Origin: a virus
Direction: 5' to 3' (one strand)
DNA length: 27,684 bases
IMG/VR virus record: IMGVR_UViG_3300028400_000027
Location: 1 to 27,684 of that record
The position numbers and the translations under genes were made by a program. The notes under the pieces were generated by a model. The model made no database searches. It saw only the letters and a list, made by a program, of their open reading frames with translations, and was not told the DNA's origin. Numbering within the stretch: position 1 is the first letter of the stretch; every line of letters starts with the position of its first letter. Below, piece after piece: positions 1,830 to 23,714 of this stretch.

Positions 1830-2558
1830 ATGAAATCATTTGAATTTTTAGACGAATCAATAAACGATAAAGGAATTTTTAAGGCCGTATTTTTCGCTGG
1901 AATTCCAGGTGCTGGAAAATCATATGTTTTAACTGAAATCAACGATGGTGGCATTGATGCTCGAATTGTTAATACTGATAAAATGCTAGAATTTTTAGCT
2001 AAATCAAAAGATATTGATATCAGTTCAAAAGAAAATCAAAAGGCTATCCTCGATAAAAGTAAAACGCTAACTATAAATCAACTTGCTAATTATATTAATG
2101 GAATGCTTCCTTTATTCATTGACGGAACTAGTTCAAATGCTTCGTCTACTTTAAGGCGGTCGGGTATTTTAGAAAGTTTTGGATATGATGTTGGTATGAT
2201 CTGGGTTGACACTGACCTAGACGTAGCTATCAAAAGAGCACAACAAAGAGAAAGAAAAGTTGACGAAGATTTTATTCGAGCAGTATATGAAAAATCAGCA
2301 GCCAATAAAGAATTCTTCGCTGAGAAATTTAATTTTTTTAAAACTATAAATAATAATGATGGCGAATTATCAGATAAAGTAATATTAAAAGCATTCAAAG
2401 AAGCACGTGGATTTTTTGAAGCACCATTAAAAAATCCAATTGGTAATCGAATAATCGAAAAATTAAAAGAAGAACACGAATCATATTTAGTGCCAACAAT
2501 TTTTTCAAAAGATGAAATTATTAAAGCCGTCTCCCAATGGTATGCCAAAGGAATATAA
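1830..2558 (+). CDS. P-loop kinase (zeta-toxin/polynucleotide kinase-like) with capsid-targeting-like N-terminus
   Basis: A 242-residue protein with Walker A GIPGAGKS at residues 24-31, directly after a hydrophobic strand (FKAVFFAG). The later segment WVDTDLDVAIKRAQQRER looks like the strand plus arginine-rich lid of zeta-toxin and polynucleotide kinase families. The substrate cannot be told: zeta toxins phosphorylate UDP-N-acetyl sugars, other relatives phosphorylate nucleic acid ends or nucleosides. The N-terminus MKSFEFLDES matches the T4 capsid-targeting pattern (MKTYQEFIAE), with LDE|S as a possible gp21 cut. It is followed without a gap by the ART-like gene. Only a weak purine-rich ribosome site precedes the ATG. 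Confidence 0.75.
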   Translation: MKSFEFLDESINDKGIFKAVFFAGIPGAGKSYVLTEINDGGIDARIVNTDKMLEFLAKSKDIDISSKENQKAILDKSKTLTINQLANYINGMLPLFIDGTSSNASSTLRRSGILESFGYDVGMIWVDTDLDVAIKRAQQRERKVDEDFIRAVYEKSAANKEFFAEKFNFFKTINNNDGELSDKVILKAFKEARGFFEAPLKNPIGNRIIEKLKEEHESYLVPTIFSKDEIIKAVSQWYAKGI

Positions 2559-3431
2559 ATGAAATCAAAAGAATTTTTATTCGAAGAAAAAAAGGTATCT
2601 CTTCTCCCGTTAAAAATAATTAATACTCTGCATCAATATTGCAGTGATTTTATTGCAAATACAAAAAAACCTCTATATAGAGGAATTAATGCAGATATAC
2701 CTCTTCTCTCAAAGAGACCTATTAGAAAAAATAGATGCCCACGAGATACATCATATGAAATAACTGCTGCATTTAATTATATATTTGAAGCACATACTGG
2801 CTATCCAGCAATAAGAAACACTTCGGCATTCACTACAATGGATGAAGCCCAGGCTGCTGATTATGGAGCTCTACATTTGGTTTTTCCAATTAACGGAACT
2901 CATTATTTATATAATAGTAAATATTCAGACTTATTCGCGGAACAAGATATTTTTGATTCTTTATCAAATTTTGAATATTTTCTCGAATCTAAAATTTCTA
3001 ATTTAGAACGCATAGATAGAATATTATCCGAATATGAGCCAATTAAAAACTTAATTTATAAAAAGTGTGGAGCCATAACAAAAGCTCAAATTGATAAATT
3101 TCTAAATAACTCTTCTGAGCTAAAAAAATATTGGTTAAAATACACAGGATTTTTTGGTAAATTTCTTAATAGTTACTATATTTACGATGGCTTTCATCCA
3201 GAATTGAACAATTCAAAAGGCGAAATTCAATTATTTGGAACTAACTATTTTTATATGATTAACCAATACAAAATAATCGAGAAATATAGAAAAACAAAAA
3301 CAAATTCAACTCCTGAGATTTTTATAGGTAAAAATGATATTGATCGGTCTGATTTTTTCGAAAATCTTACTGAATATGTTTTTAATGCTATTAAAAAGAA
3401 ACAAGAAATATATATGATTCTTAATCGATAG
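2559..3431 (+). CDS. Possible ADP-ribosyltransferase-fold protein with capsid-targeting-like N-terminus
   Basis: A 290-residue protein starting MKSKEFLFEE, again the capsid-targeting-like pattern with LFE|E as possible protease site. KKPLYRGIN (near residue 38), then NTSAFTTMDEAQAADYG, resembles the R...S-T-S arrangement of ADP-ribosyltransferases and of phage proteins annotated as ART-like. A later glutamate in KGEIQLFG could be the catalytic acid, but a clear E-x-E is missing, so activity is uncertain. AAAGGA lies in the end of the previous gene and the ATG follows its TAA directly, so the two are cotranscribed. Its 3' end overlaps the oppositely oriented next gene by 11 bases. Confidence 0.45.
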   Translation: MKSKEFLFEEKKVSLLPLKIINTLHQYCSDFIANTKKPLYRGINADIPLLSKRPIRKNRCPRDTSYEITAAFNYIFEAHTGYPAIRNTSAFTTMDEAQAADYGALHLVFPINGTHYLYNSKYSDLFAEQDIFDSLSNFEYFLESKISNLERIDRILSEYEPIKNLIYKKCGAITKAQIDKFLNNSSELKKYWLKYTGFFGKFLNSYYIYDGFHPELNNSKGEIQLFGTNYFYMINQYKIIEKYRKTKTNSTPEIFIGKNDIDRSDFFENLTEYVFNAIKKKQEIYMILNR

Positions 3432-4254
3432 AACCTGGCACAGTTAAACCTTTAGCCTTAGCAGCTTGTGCCAATCCTTTTATTTTTGGTAAAAGACGTT
3501 TGCGAGTTGCTGCATCAGCATTACGATATACACGCATTATACGAGCCCAATTATCATTAAATTTCTTTTGATCAAGTGTTTTCTGTGCTAATTTTTTGTG
3601 TTGGGTCCCATACCCAGTATCTCGTGTAATCCCTTTAAGACCACGCATTTCCGGCTGAGGTTCAAAATCTATTCCACCTTCGTAGTTATAGTCATCATCT
3701 TCTGTTAAAATACGTGTCATTGATTCGCAAAGTTTAATGGTAGTTTCAACAATTTTATTTTCGTTCATGTATTTTTCAAAATCTCTATAGCCTCGACGTC
3801 TTAGCTCACGCTTGATAGCTTTAATTTGAAAATTACGTGGTGTTCCACTCGTTGCAGCTTGATTTTTTTCGTAAGGATAAGCATGTAAAAGATTAAGTAA
3901 TTGCTCATCTGAGAATTTTTTAACCTGATCTAAAATATCTTTTGGATTGGTATCTCCCCACCAAAATGCTTTACTAAGTTTGCGTGTGAAACTATCGCTT
4001 CTTGCTTCGCGAACACGGCCTTCGTTGGACATGGCTTTTTTAAGATCTTTTACATTAAATATATGTGTATTCCCCCAATCATCTTTAACCTTAACAGAAT
4101 TCTGAGATACCGATACAACTACCATTGGTTCGTAATCTTTATCACTTTCCCATTCTGGATATACTTTATCACCAGGTTTTAAATTCCTGCTGTTTCTTGA
4201 TTCTTTAATTCTTAATGGGTTGTTTTTACTTTCGAATAATTCATAAAGATTCAT
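3421..4254 (-). CDS. Putative internal virion protein with SH3/KOW-like segment and capsid-targeting-like N-terminus
   Basis: 277 residues, function not recognised. It begins MNLYELFESK, a variant of the capsid-targeting pattern with LFE|S as a possible prohead protease site. Further (L/I)xE sites follow (RIKE|S, KIVE|T, ILTE|D), as in processed T4 head proteins. Residues 26-75 (LKPGDKVYPEW to FNVKDLKKA) look like a small KOW/SH3-type barrel. The middle is helical (DEQLLNLLHAYPYEK, FQIKAIKRELRRRGY) and the C-terminus is basic and helical (RKRLLPKIKGLAQAAKAK), suiting contact with packed DNA. GGAAAA in the end of the upstream gene serves as ribosome site. Confidence 0.55.
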   Translation of the reverse strand: MNLYELFESKNNPLRIKESRNSRNLKPGDKVYPEWESDKDYEPMVVVSVSQNSVKVKDDWGNTHIFNVKDLKKAMSNEGRVREARSDSFTRKLSKAFWWGDTNPKDILDQVKKFSDEQLLNLLHAYPYEKNQAATSGTPRNFQIKAIKRELRRRGYRDFEKYMNENKIVETTIKLCESMTRILTEDDDYNYEGGIDFEPQPEMRGLKGITRDTGYGTQHKKLAQKTLDQKKFNDNWARIMRVYRNADAATRKRLLPKIKGLAQAAKAKGLTVPGSID

Positions 4255-5254: not shown

Positions 5255-5261
5255 TATTTAT
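5255..5261 (-). promoter_or_regulatory. Late-promoter-like ATAAATA, 5 bases before ATG
   Basis: The core reads GATAAATA on the minus strand, overlaps the stop codon of the upstream gene and is followed by TAGTT and the ATG at 5249. T4 late promoters (TATAAATA) start transcription about six bases downstream, so this mRNA would begin at or near the ATG. Confidence 0.5.
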
Positions 5262-6196
5262 CTTAAATATTCGTATTCGGAACGTTTCATTCCCGGTCTA
5301 CTAAAAAGTAATACCTTTCCTGAATTATTAGATAAAATGCCAGGTTCGACCGTAAACCCTTTAAGAACTGTTTTCATTAAATCTTTTTTTAATCTTTTGT
5401 CAATTTCAGGTGAGATATCACTATCAAAAGCAAATGTTGAAACATCATCATTATAGTCTAAAAAGTTTTCTAATTTGTTCTGAACATATGATAGAATTTT
5501 CTGATATGTTTCTTCGTCTGAAGTATTAAATTGTTGTTGTGGAGAAATATCGCCACTATTATAAACATATACAAACGGAAAAACACCTTGCTTAAAATCT
5601 TCTGGATCAACAGTAAATTTTACATTATAAAAACCAATTTTTTGAGATTCTTTAATTTTTTTCTTTTTCTTACCATATATAGACGAACTACGTGTTAATG
5701 GTGCACTTAATTGTCCAACTGTTGAAGCAATTGCACCTGCACCTGTAGCACCAGCAGAAGCTGTTTCATAAAAATTTGTACCATAATTAAAAACAATTCC
5801 AACACCTTTCTTTGTTTTTAGTGGACTTGGTACCCAACTCTTAAAAATACTAGTGGCAAGATCCGTAATAATTTTCTTATTAATTTGTGGATCAATATCA
5901 ATGATAATACCAATTTGTTTTGGCCAGTACATCATCCATATTTCATCCTGCCATTGCATAAATTTCTTTTTTACATCTCTAAGAATTTCTCTATAAACTT
6001 GTTCATCAGAAAAATTAATTTTATCTTTAAAAGATAATTGTTTTTCATTATCAGTTGACTCGGGCGAAACAAATGTAAAGTAAGCAACCGGAAGCTCGCC
6101 GCCTTTATATTCCTTACCTTTTACTAATTTAGTAATTAGTTTCAGCTCAGTGAATTTTGTGTCAATATTTTCAATTACAAATTCTTTTGCTCTCAT
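5258..6196 (-). CDS. Putative internal virion protein with duplicated domain and capsid-targeting-like N-terminus
   Basis: 312 residues beginning MRAKEFVIEN (VIE|N as possible cut), close to the capsid-targeting pattern. The protein appears to contain two related halves. FSDEQVYREILRDVKKKF...IDIDPQINKKIITDLATSIFKSW in the first corresponds to TSDEETYQKILSYVQNKL...SDISPEIDKRLKKDLMKTVLKGF in the second. Between them lies an Ala/Gly/Ser-rich linker (about 150-185) with a KKKKK run and a second possible protease site, IKE|S. Processing there would release the halves separately. AGGTG precedes the ATG. The function of the repeated domain is unknown. Confidence 0.55.
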   Translation of the reverse strand: MRAKEFVIENIDTKFTELKLITKLVKGKEYKGGELPVAYFTFVSPESTDNEKQLSFKDKINFSDEQVYREILRDVKKKFMQWQDEIWMMYWPKQIGIIIDIDPQINKKIITDLATSIFKSWVPSPLKTKKGVGIVFNYGTNFYETASAGATGAGAIASTVGQLSAPLTRSSSIYGKKKKKIKESQKIGFYNVKFTVDPEDFKQGVFPFVYVYNSGDISPQQQFNTSDEETYQKILSYVQNKLENFLDYNDDVSTFAFDSDISPEIDKRLKKDLMKTVLKGFTVEPGILSNNSGKVLLFSRPGMKRSEYEYLR

Positions 6197-6493: not shown

Positions 6494-7033
6494 TTATTTA
6501 TCAGGTTTTGTATATTCTATTAAACCATCTGGATGTTGTGGCGGCGAATAAACAGTATATAATTTCAAATCTTCAGATTCTGATGTGTTAATGATATTAT
6601 GTTCGGTTCCAGCTGGCACATCAACAACAATACCATCGCTTATATTATATTCTTGACCGTTTAGAATAGATAGACCCGAACCAGCTTCAATTCGAATAAA
6701 CTGTGCACCATTATGAACTTCAGATCCAATTTCTTCACCTGGTTTTATAGACATTACAACAACCTGATTATTTTTTGATGTATATAAAACTCGACGATAT
6801 GCATCATTTTCGAGTGTTGCCTCTTCAATATTAATAACTAATGGTTCTTTTTTCTGCTTATCTTCGTTTGTTATGGCTTTAATTCTTTTTTCTACTTTCT
6901 TAACCCATTGTTCACTTGGCTTACCGTGACCGCGATAATATTGAAGAACTTTTTTTGGGTTTGATTTACTGACTAATGCCCATCTACCGTTTACTTTTTT
7001 TAACGTTTCGTTAAGAAATTCTTTTGATTTCAT
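6494..7033 (-). CDS. Cupin-domain protein with capsid-targeting-like N-terminus
   Basis: 179 residues in three parts. MKSKEFLNET is the capsid-targeting-like leader (LNE|T as possible cut). Residues 14-52 form a short basic module (NGRWALVSKSNPKKVLQYY, then KPSEQWVKKVEKR) that I associate with other phage proteins. Residues 70-175 are a cupin barrel: EVHNGAQFIRIEAGSG (105-120) and VPAGTEHNIIN (139-149) supply likely metal ligands E105, H107, Q111 and H145. This pattern matches a bacterial stand-alone cupin subfamily related to mannose-6-phosphate isomerase. The substrate is unknown. AGGAAAA overlapping the previous stop is the ribosome site. Confidence 0.8.
   Translation of the reverse strand: MKSKEFLNETLKKVNGRWALVSKSNPKKVLQYYRGHGKPSEQWVKKVEKRIKAITNEDKQKKEPLVINIEEATLENDAYRRVLYTSKNNQVVVMSIKPGEEIGSEVHNGAQFIRIEAGSGLSILNGQEYNISDGIVVDVPAGTEHNIINTSESEDLKLYTVYSPPQHPDGLIEYTKPDK
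6495..6501 (-). promoter_or_regulatory. Late-promoter-like ATAAATA, 6 bases before ATG
   Basis: GATAAATA on the minus strand overlaps the last codons of the cupin gene (Asp-Lys-stop) and lies six bases before the ATG at 6488. Coding constraint could explain part of the match. Confidence 0.35.
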
Positions 7034-7991: not shown

Positions 7992-8885
7992 TTATGTCAT
8001 TTTATCTTTAAGAATTTTCATTTTAAGATCTTTGATCTTATTATATTCATTCTTGCCCATAAGTAAAAGTATTTTAGCAAATTTTGCCGCTGCTGCTGGT
8101 TCTTCATCTAATAAACGAAGAAACTCTCTTCTGTTTTTGTAATAGCTTCCGATATCTTTGTAATAATTCCCATACGTTCTTATAAATTTGCTAACTAAAT
8201 CTTTTGTGAAACCTCGATCAATAACGGCCTCGATAAATTCAGCGGCTTGTAATGCCCTTTGTCTAGCTGAAATCATTGGATTACCAATTATAGAATATTT
8301 TTCCAAATGATTGGGATCATATTTTCCTGTGGCACTATAACCTCGCGGAATATCTCTTAATGTGTCATAAATTTCATCGACGTAATTTTGTAATTTATTT
8401 CTAATCCTTGGCAAAAATACTTTATTCAGATAAGGAAAAATATTTTCATTACTTAATCGACCAACTCTTTCTCGACGTTCAACATCTTTAACATCTGAAG
8501 ACGGTTTTTTGTCTCGAGCTCTAAAAGTATCTCTTGAATAATTTTTAATATAATAAAATTTTCCGTTACCTTTTTTGATACCTAAATATTTTTTTGCATC
8601 ACTAAATTTTTCTTCATGATGTACAGTAACTTTTCCTGATTCAGGATCATAAGAAAAAATAACCCACTCGTTTCTTAATTTTAATATCGCTCCTGCACTA
8701 CCGTCGTTGTTTACACGGATTAAAATACCAGTACCTAAATCTTTTACTGTTATTTTTTCAACATGTTTCGGCTCAACATCATGAGATAAATTAAATTTTT
8801 TAAATAAAACTCGTGTTAAAGGTTTCGGGACTCCAATTTTATCAAAACCCGGAGCAGCTTCCATAATGACGTCAAATGTTTTCAT
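7992..8885 (-). CDS. Putative internal virion protein, unknown function, capsid-targeting-like N-terminus
   Basis: 297 residues beginning MKTFDVIMEAAPGF, similar to the T4 internal protein leader with IME|A as a possible gp21 cleavage. The mature part would be basic. Residues about 40-110 look beta-rich (ILIRVNNDGSAGAILKLRNEWVIFSYD), and the C-terminal two thirds is helical, with an alanine-rich run EEPAAAAKFAKILLLMGK. No known family recognised. The stop precedes the next start by one base, as in the rest of this operon. Confidence 0.55.
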   Translation of the reverse strand: MKTFDVIMEAAPGFDKIGVPKPLTRVLFKKFNLSHDVEPKHVEKITVKDLGTGILIRVNNDGSAGAILKLRNEWVIFSYDPESGKVTVHHEEKFSDAKKYLGIKKGNGKFYYIKNYSRDTFRARDKKPSSDVKDVERRERVGRLSNENIFPYLNKVFLPRIRNKLQNYVDEIYDTLRDIPRGYSATGKYDPNHLEKYSIIGNPMISARQRALQAAEFIEAVIDRGFTKDLVSKFIRTYGNYYKDIGSYYKNRREFLRLLDEEPAAAAKFAKILLLMGKNEYNKIKDLKMKILKDKMT

Positions 8886-8887
8886 TT

Positions 8888-11875
8888 TTATCTCCTATAA
8901 TAATCTATATCTTTCATTAAATTCTTAAAAACAATATTATTTGCTTTTTCCTCATTATTATATTTTGGCATTTCAACTTCTAAACCTTCGAGGAAACGCA
9001 ACGATGCAATTTCGTCATCAATATTATATTTGTCAGCAATTTGTTGAATAGCATCAATTTTATTTTTTGGTTGATTTTCGCTTTCTGTTTTCGAAAGCAA
9101 AAGTTTTTTCAATTCATCTTTATCGATCATTCCCGAACTAAAGCCAGCAAAAATCGAAACAATATCTTTCTTTTTTTCGTTTGTAATCGATGATAATAAT
9201 TTGTATAATTTTTTACCGTACTCTTTTTTATAAGCCTCTGGATCCGCTGCCGCAGCATAAGCTACAATAAATCGATTTATTGTATTAACAATTTTATCGA
9301 AATCGTCAAGATAATCTTCGCCGCCAGGCGATCTAAATTCAACATAATCACCACGCGGATTCACTGAAACATATTTGTTTAATTTTAATTTGTTTTCGAG
9401 TGTATCTTCAATGACTCGATTAATTTTATATTTCATATTCTTTATTACTTTTGCAAATGCTTCAGCTACTTCTTGTCGATCTCTTTCAAAGGCAGATTCT
9501 GGATTCAATAAATTTTGAATATGTTTCAATGTACTTGCTGCGTATGAATTTAATTCTCGCCCAAATTGTTTTAACACATACTCATCGCCTAATAAAAGAA
9601 CCAGTTTGACATAATCAATTTTTGAGTTATCAATTTTTGAAAAACTTATATTAATATGAAATCCAGTTGAACTATTTGTGTAAGCGCCTTTAGATTTTAA
9701 GTATTCAATAACTCTTTCGAGATCCCATATACCTTCATCGTATGGTGTTGGCGGCATTGTGATTTCAATGCCCTGATCATTTTCATCATCCGGAGTAATA
9801 CTCTGATCAGGTTTAATTACCCAAACCTTACTACTGTCAGCTTCTTCGGCATAAGCATCTGATATTTCAACATCATACCCCATACTTGACAAATCATTTT
9901 CTAACATTGATGTCAAGTTTGGATCCAATTTATCTGAATATAAAGCACCGCCTGTCCAGATCAAATCATCCTGATATTGAAAATAAAGATCGCCCATATT
10001 ATTAATATGTTTTTCTAAAAGAAAACGCCCAATGGTGTATTCATCACCATTCGGAACTTCGCTATTAGCGAATTCATCGTGCAACTCGTTATAAATATAA
10101 TTCTTAAATTTGTCCTTTTCTTCGATGAAAATTTCATAATATAATTTTGATTCAGTATCTAATTTGTTATAATCCCATTCTGATGCATTACCATATTCTT
10201 TATATGATTGTTGTGCTTTTCTTAAAATTTGTTTTGCTTGATCCTCAGTTAAATCTGCGTCATTTTCATCGCCAGTTATTTCGGTAACTAAATCAATAAT
10301 ACTGTAATCAGGATCCCATTCATCGGTTATATATTCAATCTTATTGAATTCTTCTTCAAGCGGATAATCAACAATTTCGTCAACTCTTTTTTCGATCCAT
10401 TCGTCTGATTTTTTAAAGAGCCACGAATTATAATCTTGTTCAAGAAATTCAAAATCGCTATCTGTATTATATTCAAAAAAATCTTTTATATCGTCTAATG
10501 TTGTATGCCAAGTAATTTTTGGGTTTCCTTTTTCTGAAGGAAATATTACTTCAAATTCAACACCAATAACCGGACCATATTTCTTTTCTATTCTTTTAAC
10601 CTCTTTTTCGAGGTATTTTGGAGACATTTTTAATTCATTAAGTAACTTAATACCTTCAAGTATTTTTGATTTTTTACCATTGGTTTTTAAAAGAGGAGGA
10701 ACGCCATCATTTGTTGTTTTAAATCCTAATTTTTCTGCTTCGATACGTGTTTGTGCTTCGCCAACATCAGGTGTAACATTACTGCCTTTGCGAATAAGAC
10801 CAACCCCTTCAACAGCAAACTCTTTACCTTTTAATTTTGTACCAGTTACTTTCTGAATAAGTTGCCATGCTTCTTTATACTTGTGTGCTGCAATGAGTTT
10901 TGTTAAAAGATCAATTTGTTTTTTTGTCCCTTTTTGATAAAAGTCAAAAACCTCCATTGCACCAATATTACCTTCATAACTTGCTTCTAATGTTGCAATG
11001 GTTTCAGATAATTTATAAATTTGATCAAAAGAATATTTGTCGAATAATGAAGGGTTCGATTTTGTTATATCTTCAAAAATTTGTTCAACTCTTTTTCTTG
11101 AAAAACCTTTCTTTAATTCTTCAGACAATTCTTGTACAATTTCATCAGTTGATCCATCATCGTTGTGTTCAAGACTTAATCTTTTGTCTTCGAATTCTCG
11201 TTTTTTATCCCATAATTTTTGAAAATAGCCATCTGTTCTTAACATTTTAAAGGCGAGGTTCTCGGGACTAAATTCACCTTTTTTGGATAATCCAGCTTTT
11301 CTATACCTTTTTATAATATCTAATACATGATTAAGATATTTTTCATTATCTGAAGCAAGAGCTCTTATTGCTAATTCCTTTAATTTTTCATATTTCTGAA
11401 ATGTTGCAATATCATCAAGATTAGCACGTTTTTTAGTTGGAATTCTATTCCATTCATCTCTAAGAACGCTATATTCGCCTAAACTTGAATGTGGTTGGTC
11501 TTTATCTTGAACATATAACTCAACATCATAACCTTTAATTTTGATGTCATGTAAATCATTATATTGGTATTTTTTTGCATCAAACAATTCACGAAAAACT
11601 TCATCGTGCGGCAGGCGGTCAAAATCAACTATCAGATGAAGATCAATATCAGAATGCGGCGTATAACTGTAAGCGGCATTAGACCCACTTACAGTAATAT
11701 CAACCAATGCAATGTCTTCAATGCCAAGGAATTCCCTAAAATCGTCAGCTATTTTTAATAACTGTTTTCTAATTTCGGGGCGCATTTTTCCATTATAATA
11801 AAGTTGAGGATTCAACTCATTATGAAATTCAATGGCTTTTGAAAGTTCGTATTTGTCAAGTTCGCTGATATTCAT
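8888..11875 (-). CDS. Large nucleotidyltransferase + amidoligase-like fusion protein
   Basis: 995 residues from the ATG at 11875. An earlier in-frame start would run into the upstream gene. Residues 60-120 show a polymerase-beta-type nucleotidyltransferase: SGSNAAYSYTPHSDIDLHLIVD (GS at 64-65, D76-x-D78), with a third acidic pair at D117/E119 (GYDVELYV). Residues about 418-870 resemble amidoligases of the glutamine synthetase-like fold: GVEFEV (438-443), KPDQSI then GIEITMPP (702-709), TGFHINISF (737-745) and YVEFRSPGG (844-852). Amidoligases form amide bonds between carboxylates and amines using ATP. The target is unknown. A helical tail follows. No Shine-Dalgarno sequence is visible; ATAAATA lies eight bases before the ATG. 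Confidence 0.75.
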   Translation of the reverse strand: MNISELDKYELSKAIEFHNELNPQLYYNGKMRPEIRKQLLKIADDFREFLGIEDIALVDITVSGSNAAYSYTPHSDIDLHLIVDFDRLPHDEVFRELFDAKKYQYNDLHDIKIKGYDVELYVQDKDQPHSSLGEYSVLRDEWNRIPTKKRANLDDIATFQKYEKLKELAIRALASDNEKYLNHVLDIIKRYRKAGLSKKGEFSPENLAFKMLRTDGYFQKLWDKKREFEDKRLSLEHNDDGSTDEIVQELSEELKKGFSRKRVEQIFEDITKSNPSLFDKYSFDQIYKLSETIATLEASYEGNIGAMEVFDFYQKGTKKQIDLLTKLIAAHKYKEAWQLIQKVTGTKLKGKEFAVEGVGLIRKGSNVTPDVGEAQTRIEAEKLGFKTTNDGVPPLLKTNGKKSKILEGIKLLNELKMSPKYLEKEVKRIEKKYGPVIGVEFEVIFPSEKGNPKITWHTTLDDIKDFFEYNTDSDFEFLEQDYNSWLFKKSDEWIEKRVDEIVDYPLEEEFNKIEYITDEWDPDYSIIDLVTEITGDENDADLTEDQAKQILRKAQQSYKEYGNASEWDYNKLDTESKLYYEIFIEEKDKFKNYIYNELHDEFANSEVPNGDEYTIGRFLLEKHINNMGDLYFQYQDDLIWTGGALYSDKLDPNLTSMLENDLSSMGYDVEISDAYAEEADSSKVWVIKPDQSITPDDENDQGIEITMPPTPYDEGIWDLERVIEYLKSKGAYTNSSTGFHINISFSKIDNSKIDYVKLVLLLGDEYVLKQFGRELNSYAASTLKHIQNLLNPESAFERDRQEVAEAFAKVIKNMKYKINRVIEDTLENKLKLNKYVSVNPRGDYVEFRSPGGEDYLDDFDKIVNTINRFIVAYAAAADPEAYKKEYGKKLYKLLSSITNEKKKDIVSIFAGFSSGMIDKDELKKLLLSKTESENQPKNKIDAIQQIADKYNIDDEIASLRFLEGLEVEMPKYNNEEKANNIVFKNLMKDIDYYRR

Positions 11876-11876
11876 A

Positions 11877-12464
11877 TTACACGTATTTATGAAGAATTGG
11901 TTTAACTTTGGTATGAATCCAGGTCCTGCCACCTAGATCCTGCCACCGTCGAGAAAATTCTTGATTTATAGGTATGATTTTTCCGTTTCGTTTACCAAGT
12001 TCAAAAAATGATTTCATTAGATCATTACCAATTACTAATTCATGGTCCTGAAGATAGATTAAAGCCTCTTTACTTATCATAACAAATGAATGATCAATAA
12101 ACGAAACTTCTGAAATATTTCCTTCGACAATCATTGAATTGGTTCTCTGAATTATTGGCGTCGATGCACCAATAATATGTTTTTTTGATGACAACAATGC
12201 CAATATATGCCACGGCTCAAATTTTGTCCAAGGATCAACAATCATTAAATGAGTCATTGGTGGGTTTTCGAAAAATGATTTAACAATAAGATTTAAATCG
12301 CCATGAACATTAGAAGTCCATACCAAATTCATTGTCGTGGCGACTTCGCCAAAACGCAAAATACTTGAAAACGTATCAGCAGAAATTACATTATTAGCCG
12401 CGTTTATTGATATTTGAACTTGTTGATTTTTAAGATAGTCAAGGGGAGCTAAATCAATATTCAT
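11877..12464 (-). CDS. Glycosyltransferase-like protein (GT-A type, atypical)
   Basis: 195 residues. The segment THLMIVDPWTKFEPWHILALLSSKKHIIGAS has the layout of GT-A glycosyltransferases, where a hydrophobic strand ends in a D-x-D and is followed by 'p..v..ll....divga'. Here the D-x-D is replaced by D-P-W, so metal binding would differ or be lost. Upstream, an alternating region (QVQISINAANNVISADTFSSIL) fits the nucleotide-binding half. It sits between the NMNAT-like gene and the amidoligase-like gene. TTAAATA ends five bases before the ATG and no ribosome site is seen. Confidence 0.4.
   Translation of the reverse strand: MNIDLAPLDYLKNQQVQISINAANNVISADTFSSILRFGEVATTMNLVWTSNVHGDLNLIVKSFFENPPMTHLMIVDPWTKFEPWHILALLSSKKHIIGASTPIIQRTNSMIVEGNISEVSFIDHSFVMISKEALIYLQDHELVIGNDLMKSFFELGKRNGKIIPINQEFSRRWQDLGGRTWIHTKVKPILHKYV
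11884..11890 (-). promoter_or_regulatory. Late-promoter-like ATAAATA, 8 bases before ATG
   Basis: CATAAATA on the minus strand lies inside the last codons of the upstream gene, eight bases before the ATG at 11875, with no ribosome site between. Consistent with a very short or absent leader. Confidence 0.4.
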
Positions 12465-19933: not shown

Positions 19934-20231
19934 TCTTTGTTAGAGTTTCTTTTGCAATTTCTAATGCTTCTTCAAGAATCTCATATTTCTTTTCTAATTG
20001 CTTAATGATATCTGGATAATGCTGTTTATAAAAATTATTGATTTTTTCAAAATTCTTTGGATCTTTTGCTAATTCATTTTGAAATCTTGATTTCACAACT
20101 TTTTGATCTTTGTAATCAATAATTACAGACGCTAGTCGTTCATCAGATTTTTTTATTTTATCTGCAACCTTAGCTTGTTCTGTATATTTTCCGTTTGGTG
20201 TTTGATAGTACATTACAATAAAATATCTCAT
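19923..20231 (-). CDS. Small conserved phage protein of unknown function
   Basis: 102 residues. An N-terminal beta segment (MRYFIVMYYQTPNGKYTEQ; LASVIIDYKDQKVVKS) is followed by a helical tail (YPDIIKQLEKKYEILEEAL). I recall similar MRYF-type proteins in marine T4-like phages, always unassigned. It sits directly after the clamp loader gene (TAATG-type overlap), where T4 has gene 62, but no similarity to gp62 is visible. Confidence 0.6.
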   Translation of the reverse strand: MRYFIVMYYQTPNGKYTEQAKVADKIKKSDERLASVIIDYKDQKVVKSRFQNELAKDPKNFEKINNFYKQHYPDIIKQLEKKYEILEEALEIAKETLTKNEE

Positions 20232-21166
20232 TATTCTTTCTCTCTAATTTTAACTAAATCAATAAGAGTAGCACTTAAATTAATTTCTGGATCTGCTACA
20301 AATGAATGATTAACTAAACCATCACGTATAATTAAAATCGCTTCATCTTGTTCGGTTTCAGTATCACCCCAAAGGTCAAGGTTATTATACATCCATCTAA
20401 AAATTTCTTCCATTTCCTCTGGACGAACACTCGAACACAAAACTTTTCGTGCTTCGGTATATTTTTTTTGTTTTAGTAATTCAACAACTTTAAATTTATA
20501 ATCGTCGTTTGAATTAACTACGTCTTTGCTATTTGGTGCTACTAATGTTCCTGTGCCACTATTCATTTGACAAAGATTTAGACATTTGCGTAAATCAGGA
20601 TAAGTTGACTTAACATAATTATCGAGAATATCAATATCAAATTCAATACCTTCGTCAATCAAAATTTGTGCCACTCTTGCAGTAAATTCAACTTGATCAA
20701 TGACATCAATATGAAATCCCTGGCAGCGTGAATGCAACGGACCAATAATACGATGAGGAAAATTACAAGTAAGAATAAATCTTGCTGTTGAAGAATACTT
20801 CTCCATTAGTCCACGCAAAACTGCTTGAGCATTGGCAGAAAGATAATCTGCTTCATCAAGTAATACAACCTTAAAATCGCCAAATGGCATTGTTTGTACA
20901 AATCCTTCAATTGTTTCCCTAATATAATCTACTCCATTGTCGCGACTAGCATTAATTTCTTTTACATCAAAATTGTCGATACCCAATTGATTAATTAAAA
21001 TTTTAGCCAAAGTTGTTTTTCCTGTCCCCGGAGGTCCACTAAACAAAAGATGAGGGATGGATTTTTCCTTTATCCAACTTTCAACTTGGTTCTTTTGATC
21101 TTCATCCCTAAATACATATCCATCAATAGTTTTTGGTCGATATTTTTCAACCCATAATTCTTTCAT
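20231..21166 (-). CDS. 44: Sliding clamp loader large subunit, gp44-like
   Basis: 311-residue AAA+ clamp loader ATPase. WVEKYRPKTIDGYV (5-18), Walker A GPPGTGKT (44-51), DEAD box LLDEADYL (102-109), NFPHRIIGPLHSRCQG with the SRC motif (146-148). It loads the phage sliding clamp together with gp62. Neither gp45 nor gp62 is recognisable in this window. It overlaps the genes on both sides by one base, forming a coupled unit with the TagD-like gene. Confidence 0.95.
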   Translation of the reverse strand: MKELWVEKYRPKTIDGYVFRDEDQKNQVESWIKEKSIPHLLFSGPPGTGKTTLAKILINQLGIDNFDVKEINASRDNGVDYIRETIEGFVQTMPFGDFKVVLLDEADYLSANAQAVLRGLMEKYSSTARFILTCNFPHRIIGPLHSRCQGFHIDVIDQVEFTARVAQILIDEGIEFDIDILDNYVKSTYPDLRKCLNLCQMNSGTGTLVAPNSKDVVNSNDDYKFKVVELLKQKKYTEARKVLCSSVRPEEMEEIFRWMYNNLDLWGDTETEQDEAILIIRDGLVNHSFVADPEINLSATLIDLVKIREKE

Positions 21167-23189: not shown

Positions 23190-23196
23190 TATTTAT
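23190..23196 (-). promoter_or_regulatory. Late-promoter-like ATAAATA with downstream ribosome site
   Basis: GATAAATA on the minus strand, 24 bases before the ATG at 23165, with AAGGAA between, so a conventional short leader is possible. It overlaps the Leu-Arg-stop codons of the DnaE-like gene. Confidence 0.5.
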
Positions 23197-23714
23197 CTTA
23201 AAAATTCCTTTGGATCTAAATCGTAATACATACTGTTAATTCTATGAACTTTTAATTTATAAAGAACGTACGAACTAACCGAACTCCCGCGACCCACTCC
23301 CCATATAATATTATTTAATTCCATTACATCTACTAGATATTTTAAATATCTCAATAGATCAAGCAAACCGCGTTCTTGATATAGTAATAATTCTTCGCCA
23401 CATCTTTGTAATTCTTCTTGAGTTTCGCAAAGATCTAGGACATATTTGCAAATGTCCATTTCTTTATATGATTCTGGCATGAACCATTTTTGTTGTCTTT
23501 CGATATCAAATTCTTGAATTGATTTGTCTTCTTCGAAATATTTTATTAATGCTTCGTATCCTACCAAAGCATTAGCTTTTTCAATATCGATATCGTCTTC
23601 GATAATAAAAGGACCTGGTTTATATTCACTCAAACCACTACTTGTGTCATGCATTAACACATCAAAAATTTCATCCTCTGTAAAAATTATCTGGCCAAAT
23701 TTATCTTTTTTCAT
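23193..23714 (-). CDS. DNA polymerase III alpha (DnaE)-like fragment lacking the catalytic aspartates
   Basis: 173 residues. LLDLLRYLKYLVDVMELNNI followed by IWGVGRGSSVSSYVLYKL (138-154) and INSMYYDLDPKEFLR matches the DnaE segment 'dfv.yak..gi.vgpGRGS..gSlvaY.lgIt.iDPl...LlFeRFL'. In DnaE the catalytic PDxDxDF follows immediately; here the protein stops at that point. It therefore has a nucleotide-binding palm segment without the active-site acids and cannot be a polymerase by itself. The frame is clean up to the stop and the gene overlaps its upstream neighbour (ATGA), so it looks like an established gene rather than decay. Confidence 0.75.
   Translation of the reverse strand: MKKDKFGQIIFTEDEIFDVLMHDTSSGLSEYKPGPFIIEDDIDIEKANALVGYEALIKYFEEDKSIQEFDIERQQKWFMPESYKEMDICKYVLDLCETQEELQRCGEELLLYQERGLLDLLRYLKYLVDVMELNNIIWGVGRGSSVSSYVLYKLKVHRINSMYYDLDPKEFLR

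What the first reader, a model, noticed from the sequence alone, without database searches (positions are those of the whole stretch)
8888..11875. 995-residue nucleotidyltransferase-amidoligase fusion
A polymerase-beta-type nucleotidyltransferase (GS...DID...DVE) and an amidoligase-like ligase with all its hallmark motifs are in one chain, with about 300 residues of helical linker. One half could adenylate, the other form an amide. Targets might be a host protein, peptidoglycan or a nucleotide. I know of no described function for such a combination in phages.
Basis: partly seen in the sequence, partly recalled or inferred. Interest (0 to 1): 0.72.

Follow-up and report, generated by a model that had tools for sequence, protein, structure and literature searches.

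The report
Phage cargo polyprotein: nucleotidyltransferase plus amidoligase
A virus of bacteria encodes one long protein that joins two different enzymes; comparison with relatives suggests it is made late, packed inside the virus head, cut apart there at built-in cut sites and injected into the next cell, as a kit of host-modifying enzymes on one chain.

Summary
The minus strand at 8888-11875 encodes 995 residues: a Pol-beta-type nucleotidyltransferase (NT, 1-236) and a glutamine-synthetase-fold amidoligase (AL, about 415-928), with catalytic residues conserved across relatives and matching folds. It is not a one-off: about 60 distinct phage ORFs carry NT and AL in one chain; 55 also hold a zincin metallopeptidase (MP) between them, which the window's clade lacks. 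Close relatives encode NT, AL and MP as separate neighbouring genes. Standalone AL, MP and LK genes typically begin with T4-like capsid-targeting sequences. In the fusions the same junctions hold [LIV]xE sites like those the T4 prohead protease cuts; such motifs are 2.6 times enriched in linkers and depleted in domains. NT genes have a T4-late-promoter-like element just upstream (60 of 67 against about 0.6% by chance), and the large relative contigs carry the prohead protease. Best reading: a late, capsid-packaged effector polyprotein, cut in the head and injected. Packaging, cleavage and substrates are inferred, not shown. New variant of a known kind (polyvalent / T4 internal proteins). Interest 0.62.

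The parts
8888..11875 (-). Focal CDS, 995 aa: nucleotidyltransferase (NT) - helical GN module - LK module - amidoligase (AL)
   Evidence: homologues start at the same ATG
11168..11875 (-). NT domain, residues 1-236: Pol-beta nucleotidyltransferase palm with a C-terminal helical part; GS64-65, D76, D78, E119
   Evidence: PHROG_36119 E=2.6e-42; NTP_transf_2 in 35 of 36 relatives; invariant residues; fold
10820..10987 (-). GN module, residues 297-352: small helical module that in L075 and L114 directly follows the capsid-targeting-like start of a standalone amidoligase gene
10808..10810 (-). Candidate prohead-protease-type site AVE356|GVGLI; resembles the start of a standalone LK gene in L005 (MRVIEIIE|GVGII)
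   Evidence: motif only, cleavage not shown
10673..10792 (-). LK module, residues about 362-401 (conserved short module of unknown function)
   Evidence: HMM hit
10634..10657 (-). Candidate cleavage sites KILE407|G and LNE414|LKMSP; E414 is invariant in 31 fusions
9092..10633 (-). AL domain, residues about 415-928: glutamine-synthetase-fold amidoligase with E440/E442, E704, H740, K834, E846/R848 and a helical insert at about 446-640
   Evidence: PF12224, invariant residues, GS fold
11884..11890 (-). T4-late-promoter-like ATAAATA, 8 nt upstream of the start codon
   Evidence: same element upstream of 60 of 67 homologous genes
7992..8885 (-). Next gene downstream, starts MKTFDVIMEA (capsid-targeting-like); L068 has a 303-aa gene at the same place starting MKATEFLIEA
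6494..7033 (-). Cupin-domain gene starting MKSKEFLNET (capsid-targeting-like)
5258..6196 (-). Gene starting MRAKEFVIEN (capsid-targeting-like)
3421..4254 (-). Gene starting MNLYELFES (capsid-targeting-like)
2559..3431 (+). Gene starting MKSKEFLFEE (capsid-targeting-like)
1830..2558 (+). Zeta-toxin/AAA-type kinase starting MKSFEFLDES (capsid-targeting-like)

Best explanation
It is a late-expressed cargo polyprotein of a large T4-related phage. Shown from sequence: an NT and a GS-fold AL are fused in one chain; the same modules, with a zincin metallopeptidase, occur fused or as neighbouring genes in related phages; the junctions hold [LIV]xE motifs of the kind cut by T4-type prohead protease; a late-promoter-like element precedes the gene. 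Inferred: the chain is taken into the prohead with other capsid-targeting-bearing proteins from the same gene island, is cut there (or in the cell) into NT, LK and AL pieces, and is injected with the DNA. In the new host the NT most likely attaches a nucleotide to a host protein or RNA, and the AL most likely makes an amide, for instance by adding an amino acid or amine to a carboxylate of a host protein, as two independent early takeover or counter-defence activities. My split: packaged and processed, about 0.55; independent host-directed modification enzymes given that, about 0.6; exact substrates unknown. The confidence given is for the packaged-and-processed core.
For: Fused in about 60 distinct ORFs. 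NT, AL and MP lie as separate genes within about 10 kb in L076, L114 and L115, among other genes with capsid-targeting-like starts. Standalone AL, MP and LK genes start with such sequences (MRFKEFVIET, MKSTEFILES, MRVIEIIEG). At the AL junction 84 of 89 sequences hold [LIVMFY]xE just before the domain; before GYIP 59 of 68 hold [LIVMF]xE[ASNG]. [LIV]xE[SAGN] motifs: 116 in pre-AL linkers against 44 expected from shuffles, depleted in NT (9 against 49) and in the other domains. Published T4 gp21 sites are LIE-9, ITE-6 and LTE-619 (PMC9026906; PMC5694885). gp23 of these phages has the like sequence LAE|SASSG / LKE|NASAG near the expected maturation point. Prohead protease PF03420 is present in 13 of 20 relative contigs, including every one over 265 kb, with gp23 beside it. 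[AG]TAAATA within 40 nt upstream in 60 of 67 NT genes against about 0.006 expected each; the same element precedes portal and core genes in the relatives; T4 late consensus TATAAATA (PMC1524935). ORF starts match a capsid-targeting pattern in 18.3% against 0.95% at internal Met.
Against: The focal protein has no textbook capsid-targeting start: MNISELDKYEL fails my pattern, though I3-S-E5|L resembles a minimal site. No cleavage or packaging is shown, and [LIV]xE is a weak, common motif whose counts come from related sequences. The focal gene's pre-LK site has Ala at P3 (AVE356). The window has no head genes, so its own protease was not seen. The closest cultured relative by clamp loader, PA5oct, shows no match to this protein. 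A T4-like late promoter 8 nt from the ATG implies an almost leaderless mRNA. No substrate evidence exists for either enzyme.
Confidence: 0.52

Rival explanations
1. Cytoplasmic bifunctional enzyme: an intact chain, not packaged, that works late in infection on a phage or host metabolite or virion protein, with NT and AL acting on one pathway.
For: Recurrent fusion and neighbourhood suggest a functional link; the focal protein lacks a clear capsid-targeting start; catalytic residues of both domains are conserved; the gene sits between replication genes.
Against: Standalone AL, MP and LK genes carry capsid-targeting-like starts and lie among other such genes; conserved [LIV]xE sites between the domains; other fusions insert unrelated modules such as a peptidase.
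Confidence: 0.25
2. Polyvalent protein matured mainly by its embedded zincin peptidase (as proposed by Iyer et al. 2017) rather than by the prohead protease; the focal clade uses a peptidase in trans or none.
For: 27 of 31 aligned fusions hold HExxH between NT and AL and members match metallopeptidase Pfam families; such peptidases are the hub of published polyvalent proteins.
Against: The focal clade of five lacks the peptidase yet keeps the junction motifs; in the NT tree this clade is sister to lineages with unfused genes, so it need not be a decayed version.
Confidence: 0.2
3. Structural or scaffold-associated head protein whose enzyme folds are no longer catalytic.
For: Late-promoter-like element and processing-like sites fit head proteins.
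Against: All catalytic-type residues of NT and AL are invariant among sequences about 30% identical; the gene is patchy and modular, unlike core head genes.
Confidence: 0.05

Closest known systems
Polyvalent proteins of phages and conjugative elements (Iyer et al. 2017, PMC5512222)
   Same: Large multidomain chains that combine unrelated activities, including Pol-beta NTases and zincin metallopeptidases, predicted to be injected with the DNA and to be released by proteolysis.
   Different: That paper's main text names no amidoligase; its NTases are mainly from firmicute mobile elements fused to ArdC-N; the focal protein lacks the peptidase; here the junctions look like prohead-protease sites.
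T4 internal proteins and Alt (capsid-targeting sequence, gp21 processing)
   Same: Late promoter, capsid-targeting-like starts in sister genes, [LI]xE cleavage motifs, S77 prohead protease in the genomes; T4 Alt is an ejected protein cut at both ends.
   Different: T4 cargo is one enzyme per gene; here several enzymes share one chain with motifs between them, and the focal start is not a clear capsid-targeting sequence.
Amidoligase_2 (PF12224) phage amidoligases
   Same: Same family above cut-off, GS fold.
   Different: Many other phage amidoligases are shorter proteins of about 250-560 aa; here it is fused to NT and has a helical insert of about 170-190 residues.
Pol-beta NTases: MNT antitoxins, CD-NTases, aminoglycoside adenylyltransferases
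   Same: Palm fold and DxD...E catalytic set.
   Different: No close sequence relation to any solved one (best E 0.028); own conserved C-terminal helical part (GEFxxEN..FKxLR).

Membership tests
Amidoligase_2 (PF12224) | Profile match above the curated cut-off | tested here: met
   43.5 bits against 22; 28 of 31 relatives match
Amidoligase_2 (PF12224) | Glutamine-synthetase fold | tested here: met
   VIA Z up to 13.5, 197 residues aligned, rmsd 3.4, all 50 best rows GS or GS-like
Amidoligase_2 (PF12224) | ATP-dependent amide bond formation | not testable with these tools
   Needs an assay
Pol-beta nucleotidyltransferase superfamily | GS...DxD...E catalytic set | tested here: met
   G64, S65, D76, D78 and E119 invariant in 36 sequences
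Pol-beta nucleotidyltransferase superfamily | Single-sequence match over the curated Pfam cut-off (an aid to detection, not a biological feature) | tested here: inconclusive
   NTP_transf_2 18 bits against 21 for the focal domain alone; relatives reach E=1.9e-5
Pol-beta nucleotidyltransferase superfamily | Pol-beta palm fold | tested here: met
   Foldseek E down to 3.3e-4 with CdnE and AAD(9), rows dominated by NTases; Z at most 7.1, so superfamily level only
Polyvalent proteins | Several unrelated catalytic domains in one chain | tested here: met
   NT and AL, plus MP in relatives
Polyvalent proteins | Embedded zincin metallopeptidase (common, about 36% of the published set, not required) | tested here: not met
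   No HExxH in the focal, L002, L003 or L004; present in 27 of 31 aligned
Polyvalent proteins | Transfer into the host with the DNA | not testable with these tools
   Only indirect genome evidence
T4-type capsid-targeted internal proteins | N-terminal capsid-targeting sequence | tested here: inconclusive
   Focal start MNISELDKYEL misses the pattern used; standalone AL, MP and LK relatives meet it
T4-type capsid-targeted internal proteins | Cleavage by the prohead protease | not testable with these tools
   Motifs present and enriched; cleavage itself unknown
T4-type capsid-targeted internal proteins | Late promoter | tested here: met
   ATAAATA at 11890-11884, element in 60 of 67 relatives; consensus; sequence match only, no expression data
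T4-type capsid-targeted internal proteins | S77 prohead protease in the genome | tested here: inconclusive
   The window is a 27.7-kb fragment without head genes; 13 of 20 relative contigs have it
RlaP / RNA-repair NTases | Association with RNA ligase, own profile | tested here: inconclusive
   No such Pfam match for the focal protein or NT set; no RNA ligase recognised among the window's ORFs

The most novel reading that the evidence does not exclude
T4-related large phages carry true effector polyproteins: several host-modifying enzymes (nucleotidyltransferase, metallopeptidase, GS-fold ligase) are made as one chain whose junctions are internal copies of the capsid-cargo cleavage signal, so that the prohead protease releases them inside the virion before injection. 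NT and AL may even have been fused twice independently, since the window's clade is sister to lineages with unfused genes.
Probability: 0.4. Interest if true: 0.78.

Novelty: new variant of a known kind. Interest (0 to 1): 0.62.

Why it matters
If right, it joins two known ideas, polyvalent proteins and T4 capsid-targeted cargo, by one testable mechanism and adds two host-modifying chemistries (nucleotide transfer and amide ligation) to what a virion can inject. It also gives simple sequence rules (late-promoter element, capsid-targeting start, [LIV]xE junction) to find injected effectors in unannotated phage genomes, and it explains a large group of 'hypothetical' proteins of 920 to more than 2,500 residues.

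Tried and rejected
PADLOC and NCBIfam gave nothing useful. PDB sequence search found no solved relative for AL and only weak NTase hits, including DrrA at E=0.16, which I do not use. Foldseek on the full 995-residue model was weak (best E 0.064), so NT was modelled alone. The genome-contig scan found only NT relatives in five bacterial assemblies, no NT-AL fusion. Cultured phages hold NT alone or AL alone; no match covered both. Loss of the peptidase in the focal clade was considered, but the NT tree places this clade with unfused lineages (100/98 support for the nine-row group), so an independent fusion is at least as likely; I did not test this formally. The idea that NT adenylates a substrate for AL was rejected for the reasons given. 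Whether Atu_ph07 gp196 was seen in virions could not be read: supplement and figure are not held.

Full report
Observation. The window is a 27,684-base virus record. The finding's coordinates hold a 995-residue ORF on the minus strand. Residues 9-235 match PHROG_36119 (E=2.6e-42, unknown function) and, as a family, Pfam NTP_transf_2 (35 of 36 relatives). Residues 673-853 match Amidoligase_2 at E=4.7e-11. AlphaFold models give pLDDT 73.6 for the whole chain and 89 for NT alone. The amidoligase half aligns to glutamine synthetases at Z up to 13.5; NT is Pol-beta-like at modest scores.

Recurrence. One viral scan with the protein returned 62 loci, and a second with an amidoligase alignment returned 80 (some lie on the same contigs). 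With profiles built from the family, the distinct ORFs fall into 55 NT-MP-LK-AL, 5 NT-LK-AL (the window, L002, L003, L004, L068), 30 AL alone, 14 NT alone, 13 MP alone and smaller classes. MP is a zincin: HExxH with a downstream ENEAN-type glutamate in 27 of 31 aligned fusions, with Pfam M48, M78 or DUF6782 in a few members. NT residues D76, D78 and E119 and AL residues E440, E442, E704, H740, K834, E846 and R848 are invariant.

Fusion and fission. In L076, L114 and L115 the modules NT-LK, AL and MP are separate genes within about 10 kb; in L076 and L115, whose maps I printed, they are interleaved with other genes that start with capsid-targeting-like sequences. In the NT tree the window's five-member clade (100/93) is sister to lineages with unfused genes (L005, L006, then L076, L115; group support 100/98), so its fusion may be independent of the NT-MP-LK-AL type. 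The root is a midpoint and this is an inference.

Signals of capsid cargo. Standalone AL, MP and LK genes begin with sequences such as MRFKEFVIET, MKSTEFILESAA and MRVIEIIEGVG. T4 cargo starts are 10-19 residues (PMC9026906), and published or inferred gp21 sites are LIE-9, ITE-6 and LTE-619. In the fusions the corresponding internal junctions hold such motifs: 84 of 89 AL sequences just before the domain and 59 of 68 before the LK GYIP motif. Across 59 fusions [LIV]xE[SAGN] occurs 116 times in pre-AL linkers against 44 expected from shuffles, and is below expectation in NT, MP, AL and the tail. These sequences are related, so the ratio is descriptive. In the window the sites are AVE356|G, KILE407|G and LNE414|L, E414 being invariant. 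The major capsid protein of the relatives has a like motif near its expected maturation point. Relative contigs carry the S77 protease in 13 of 20 cases, among them every contig above 265 kb, and those 13 also carry gp23.

Late promoter. ATAAATA lies 8 nt before the focal ATG. Sixty of 67 homologous NT genes have [AG]TAAATA within 40 nt, where about 0.4 genes would be expected from the overall density. In the relatives the same element precedes the portal gene and a prohead-core-like gene (recognised by sequence). The T4 late consensus is TATAAATA, and late promoters of T4-like phages were found 5' of late-gene orthologues (PMC1524935). AT-rich stretches in the window give other matches too, some before genes not known to be late.

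Mechanism. The best account is a late, capsid-packaged cargo polyprotein, cut by the prohead protease or, in most relatives, possibly helped by the embedded zincin, then injected. In the cell NT and AL would act as independent modification enzymes. Targets are unknown; a host protein is my leading guess for both, from the precedent of injected T4 Alt and from the predicted role of MNT-type NTases. Coupling of the two reactions is not required, since GS-fold ligases phosphorylate their own substrate (established knowledge).

Known or new. Each domain is known, and some UniProt phage entries already bear 'Amidoligase enzyme' or 'nucleotidyl transferase' names. I found no paper on the fusion or on internal prohead-protease sites in such a chain, within an open-access library only. 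I therefore call it a new variant of a known kind.

Limits. No packaging, cleavage or enzymatic data; the window lacks head genes; the focal start is not a clear capsid-targeting sequence; most relatives are metagenomic contigs without isolates.

Noticed in passing
window 2559-3431 (+): 290-aa gene starting MKSKEFLFEE; by eye it has ADP-ribosyltransferase-like features, but no Pfam match and only PHROGs of unknown function (phrog_11975), so this is unverified.
   Followed up: partly
window 1830-2558 (+): Zeta-toxin/AAA-type kinase with a capsid-targeting-like start, a candidate injected kinase.
   Followed up: partly
window 23193-23714 (-): 173-aa ORF with a bacterial DNA polymerase III alpha match (E=2e-6) in a phage that also seems to encode a family-B-like polymerase at 3-1415 (by eye); resembles the split minimal PolIII reported for jumbo phages (PMC7824862).
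   Followed up: no
window 20231-21166 (-): Clamp loader 57.8% identical to Pseudomonas jumbo phages PA5oct and Paride, so the window is probably from a large phage distantly related to them.
   Followed up: partly
L003 about residues 600-705 of the 1705-aa fusion: Insert with a ParB-like GDGNHR motif by eye and phrog_17560 (E=4.6e-5): a further module in the chain.
   Followed up: no
L013 and L137: Two amidoligase ORFs next to each other in tandem.
   Followed up: no
L149, L150, L151: NT relatives in Melainabacteria (Gastranaerophilales) assemblies as single genes of about 244-272 aa; not known whether chromosomal or viral.
   Followed up: no
L117, L121, L099: Fusion ORFs of 2,092-2,560 aa, so the chain can be much longer than in the window.
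   Followed up: no
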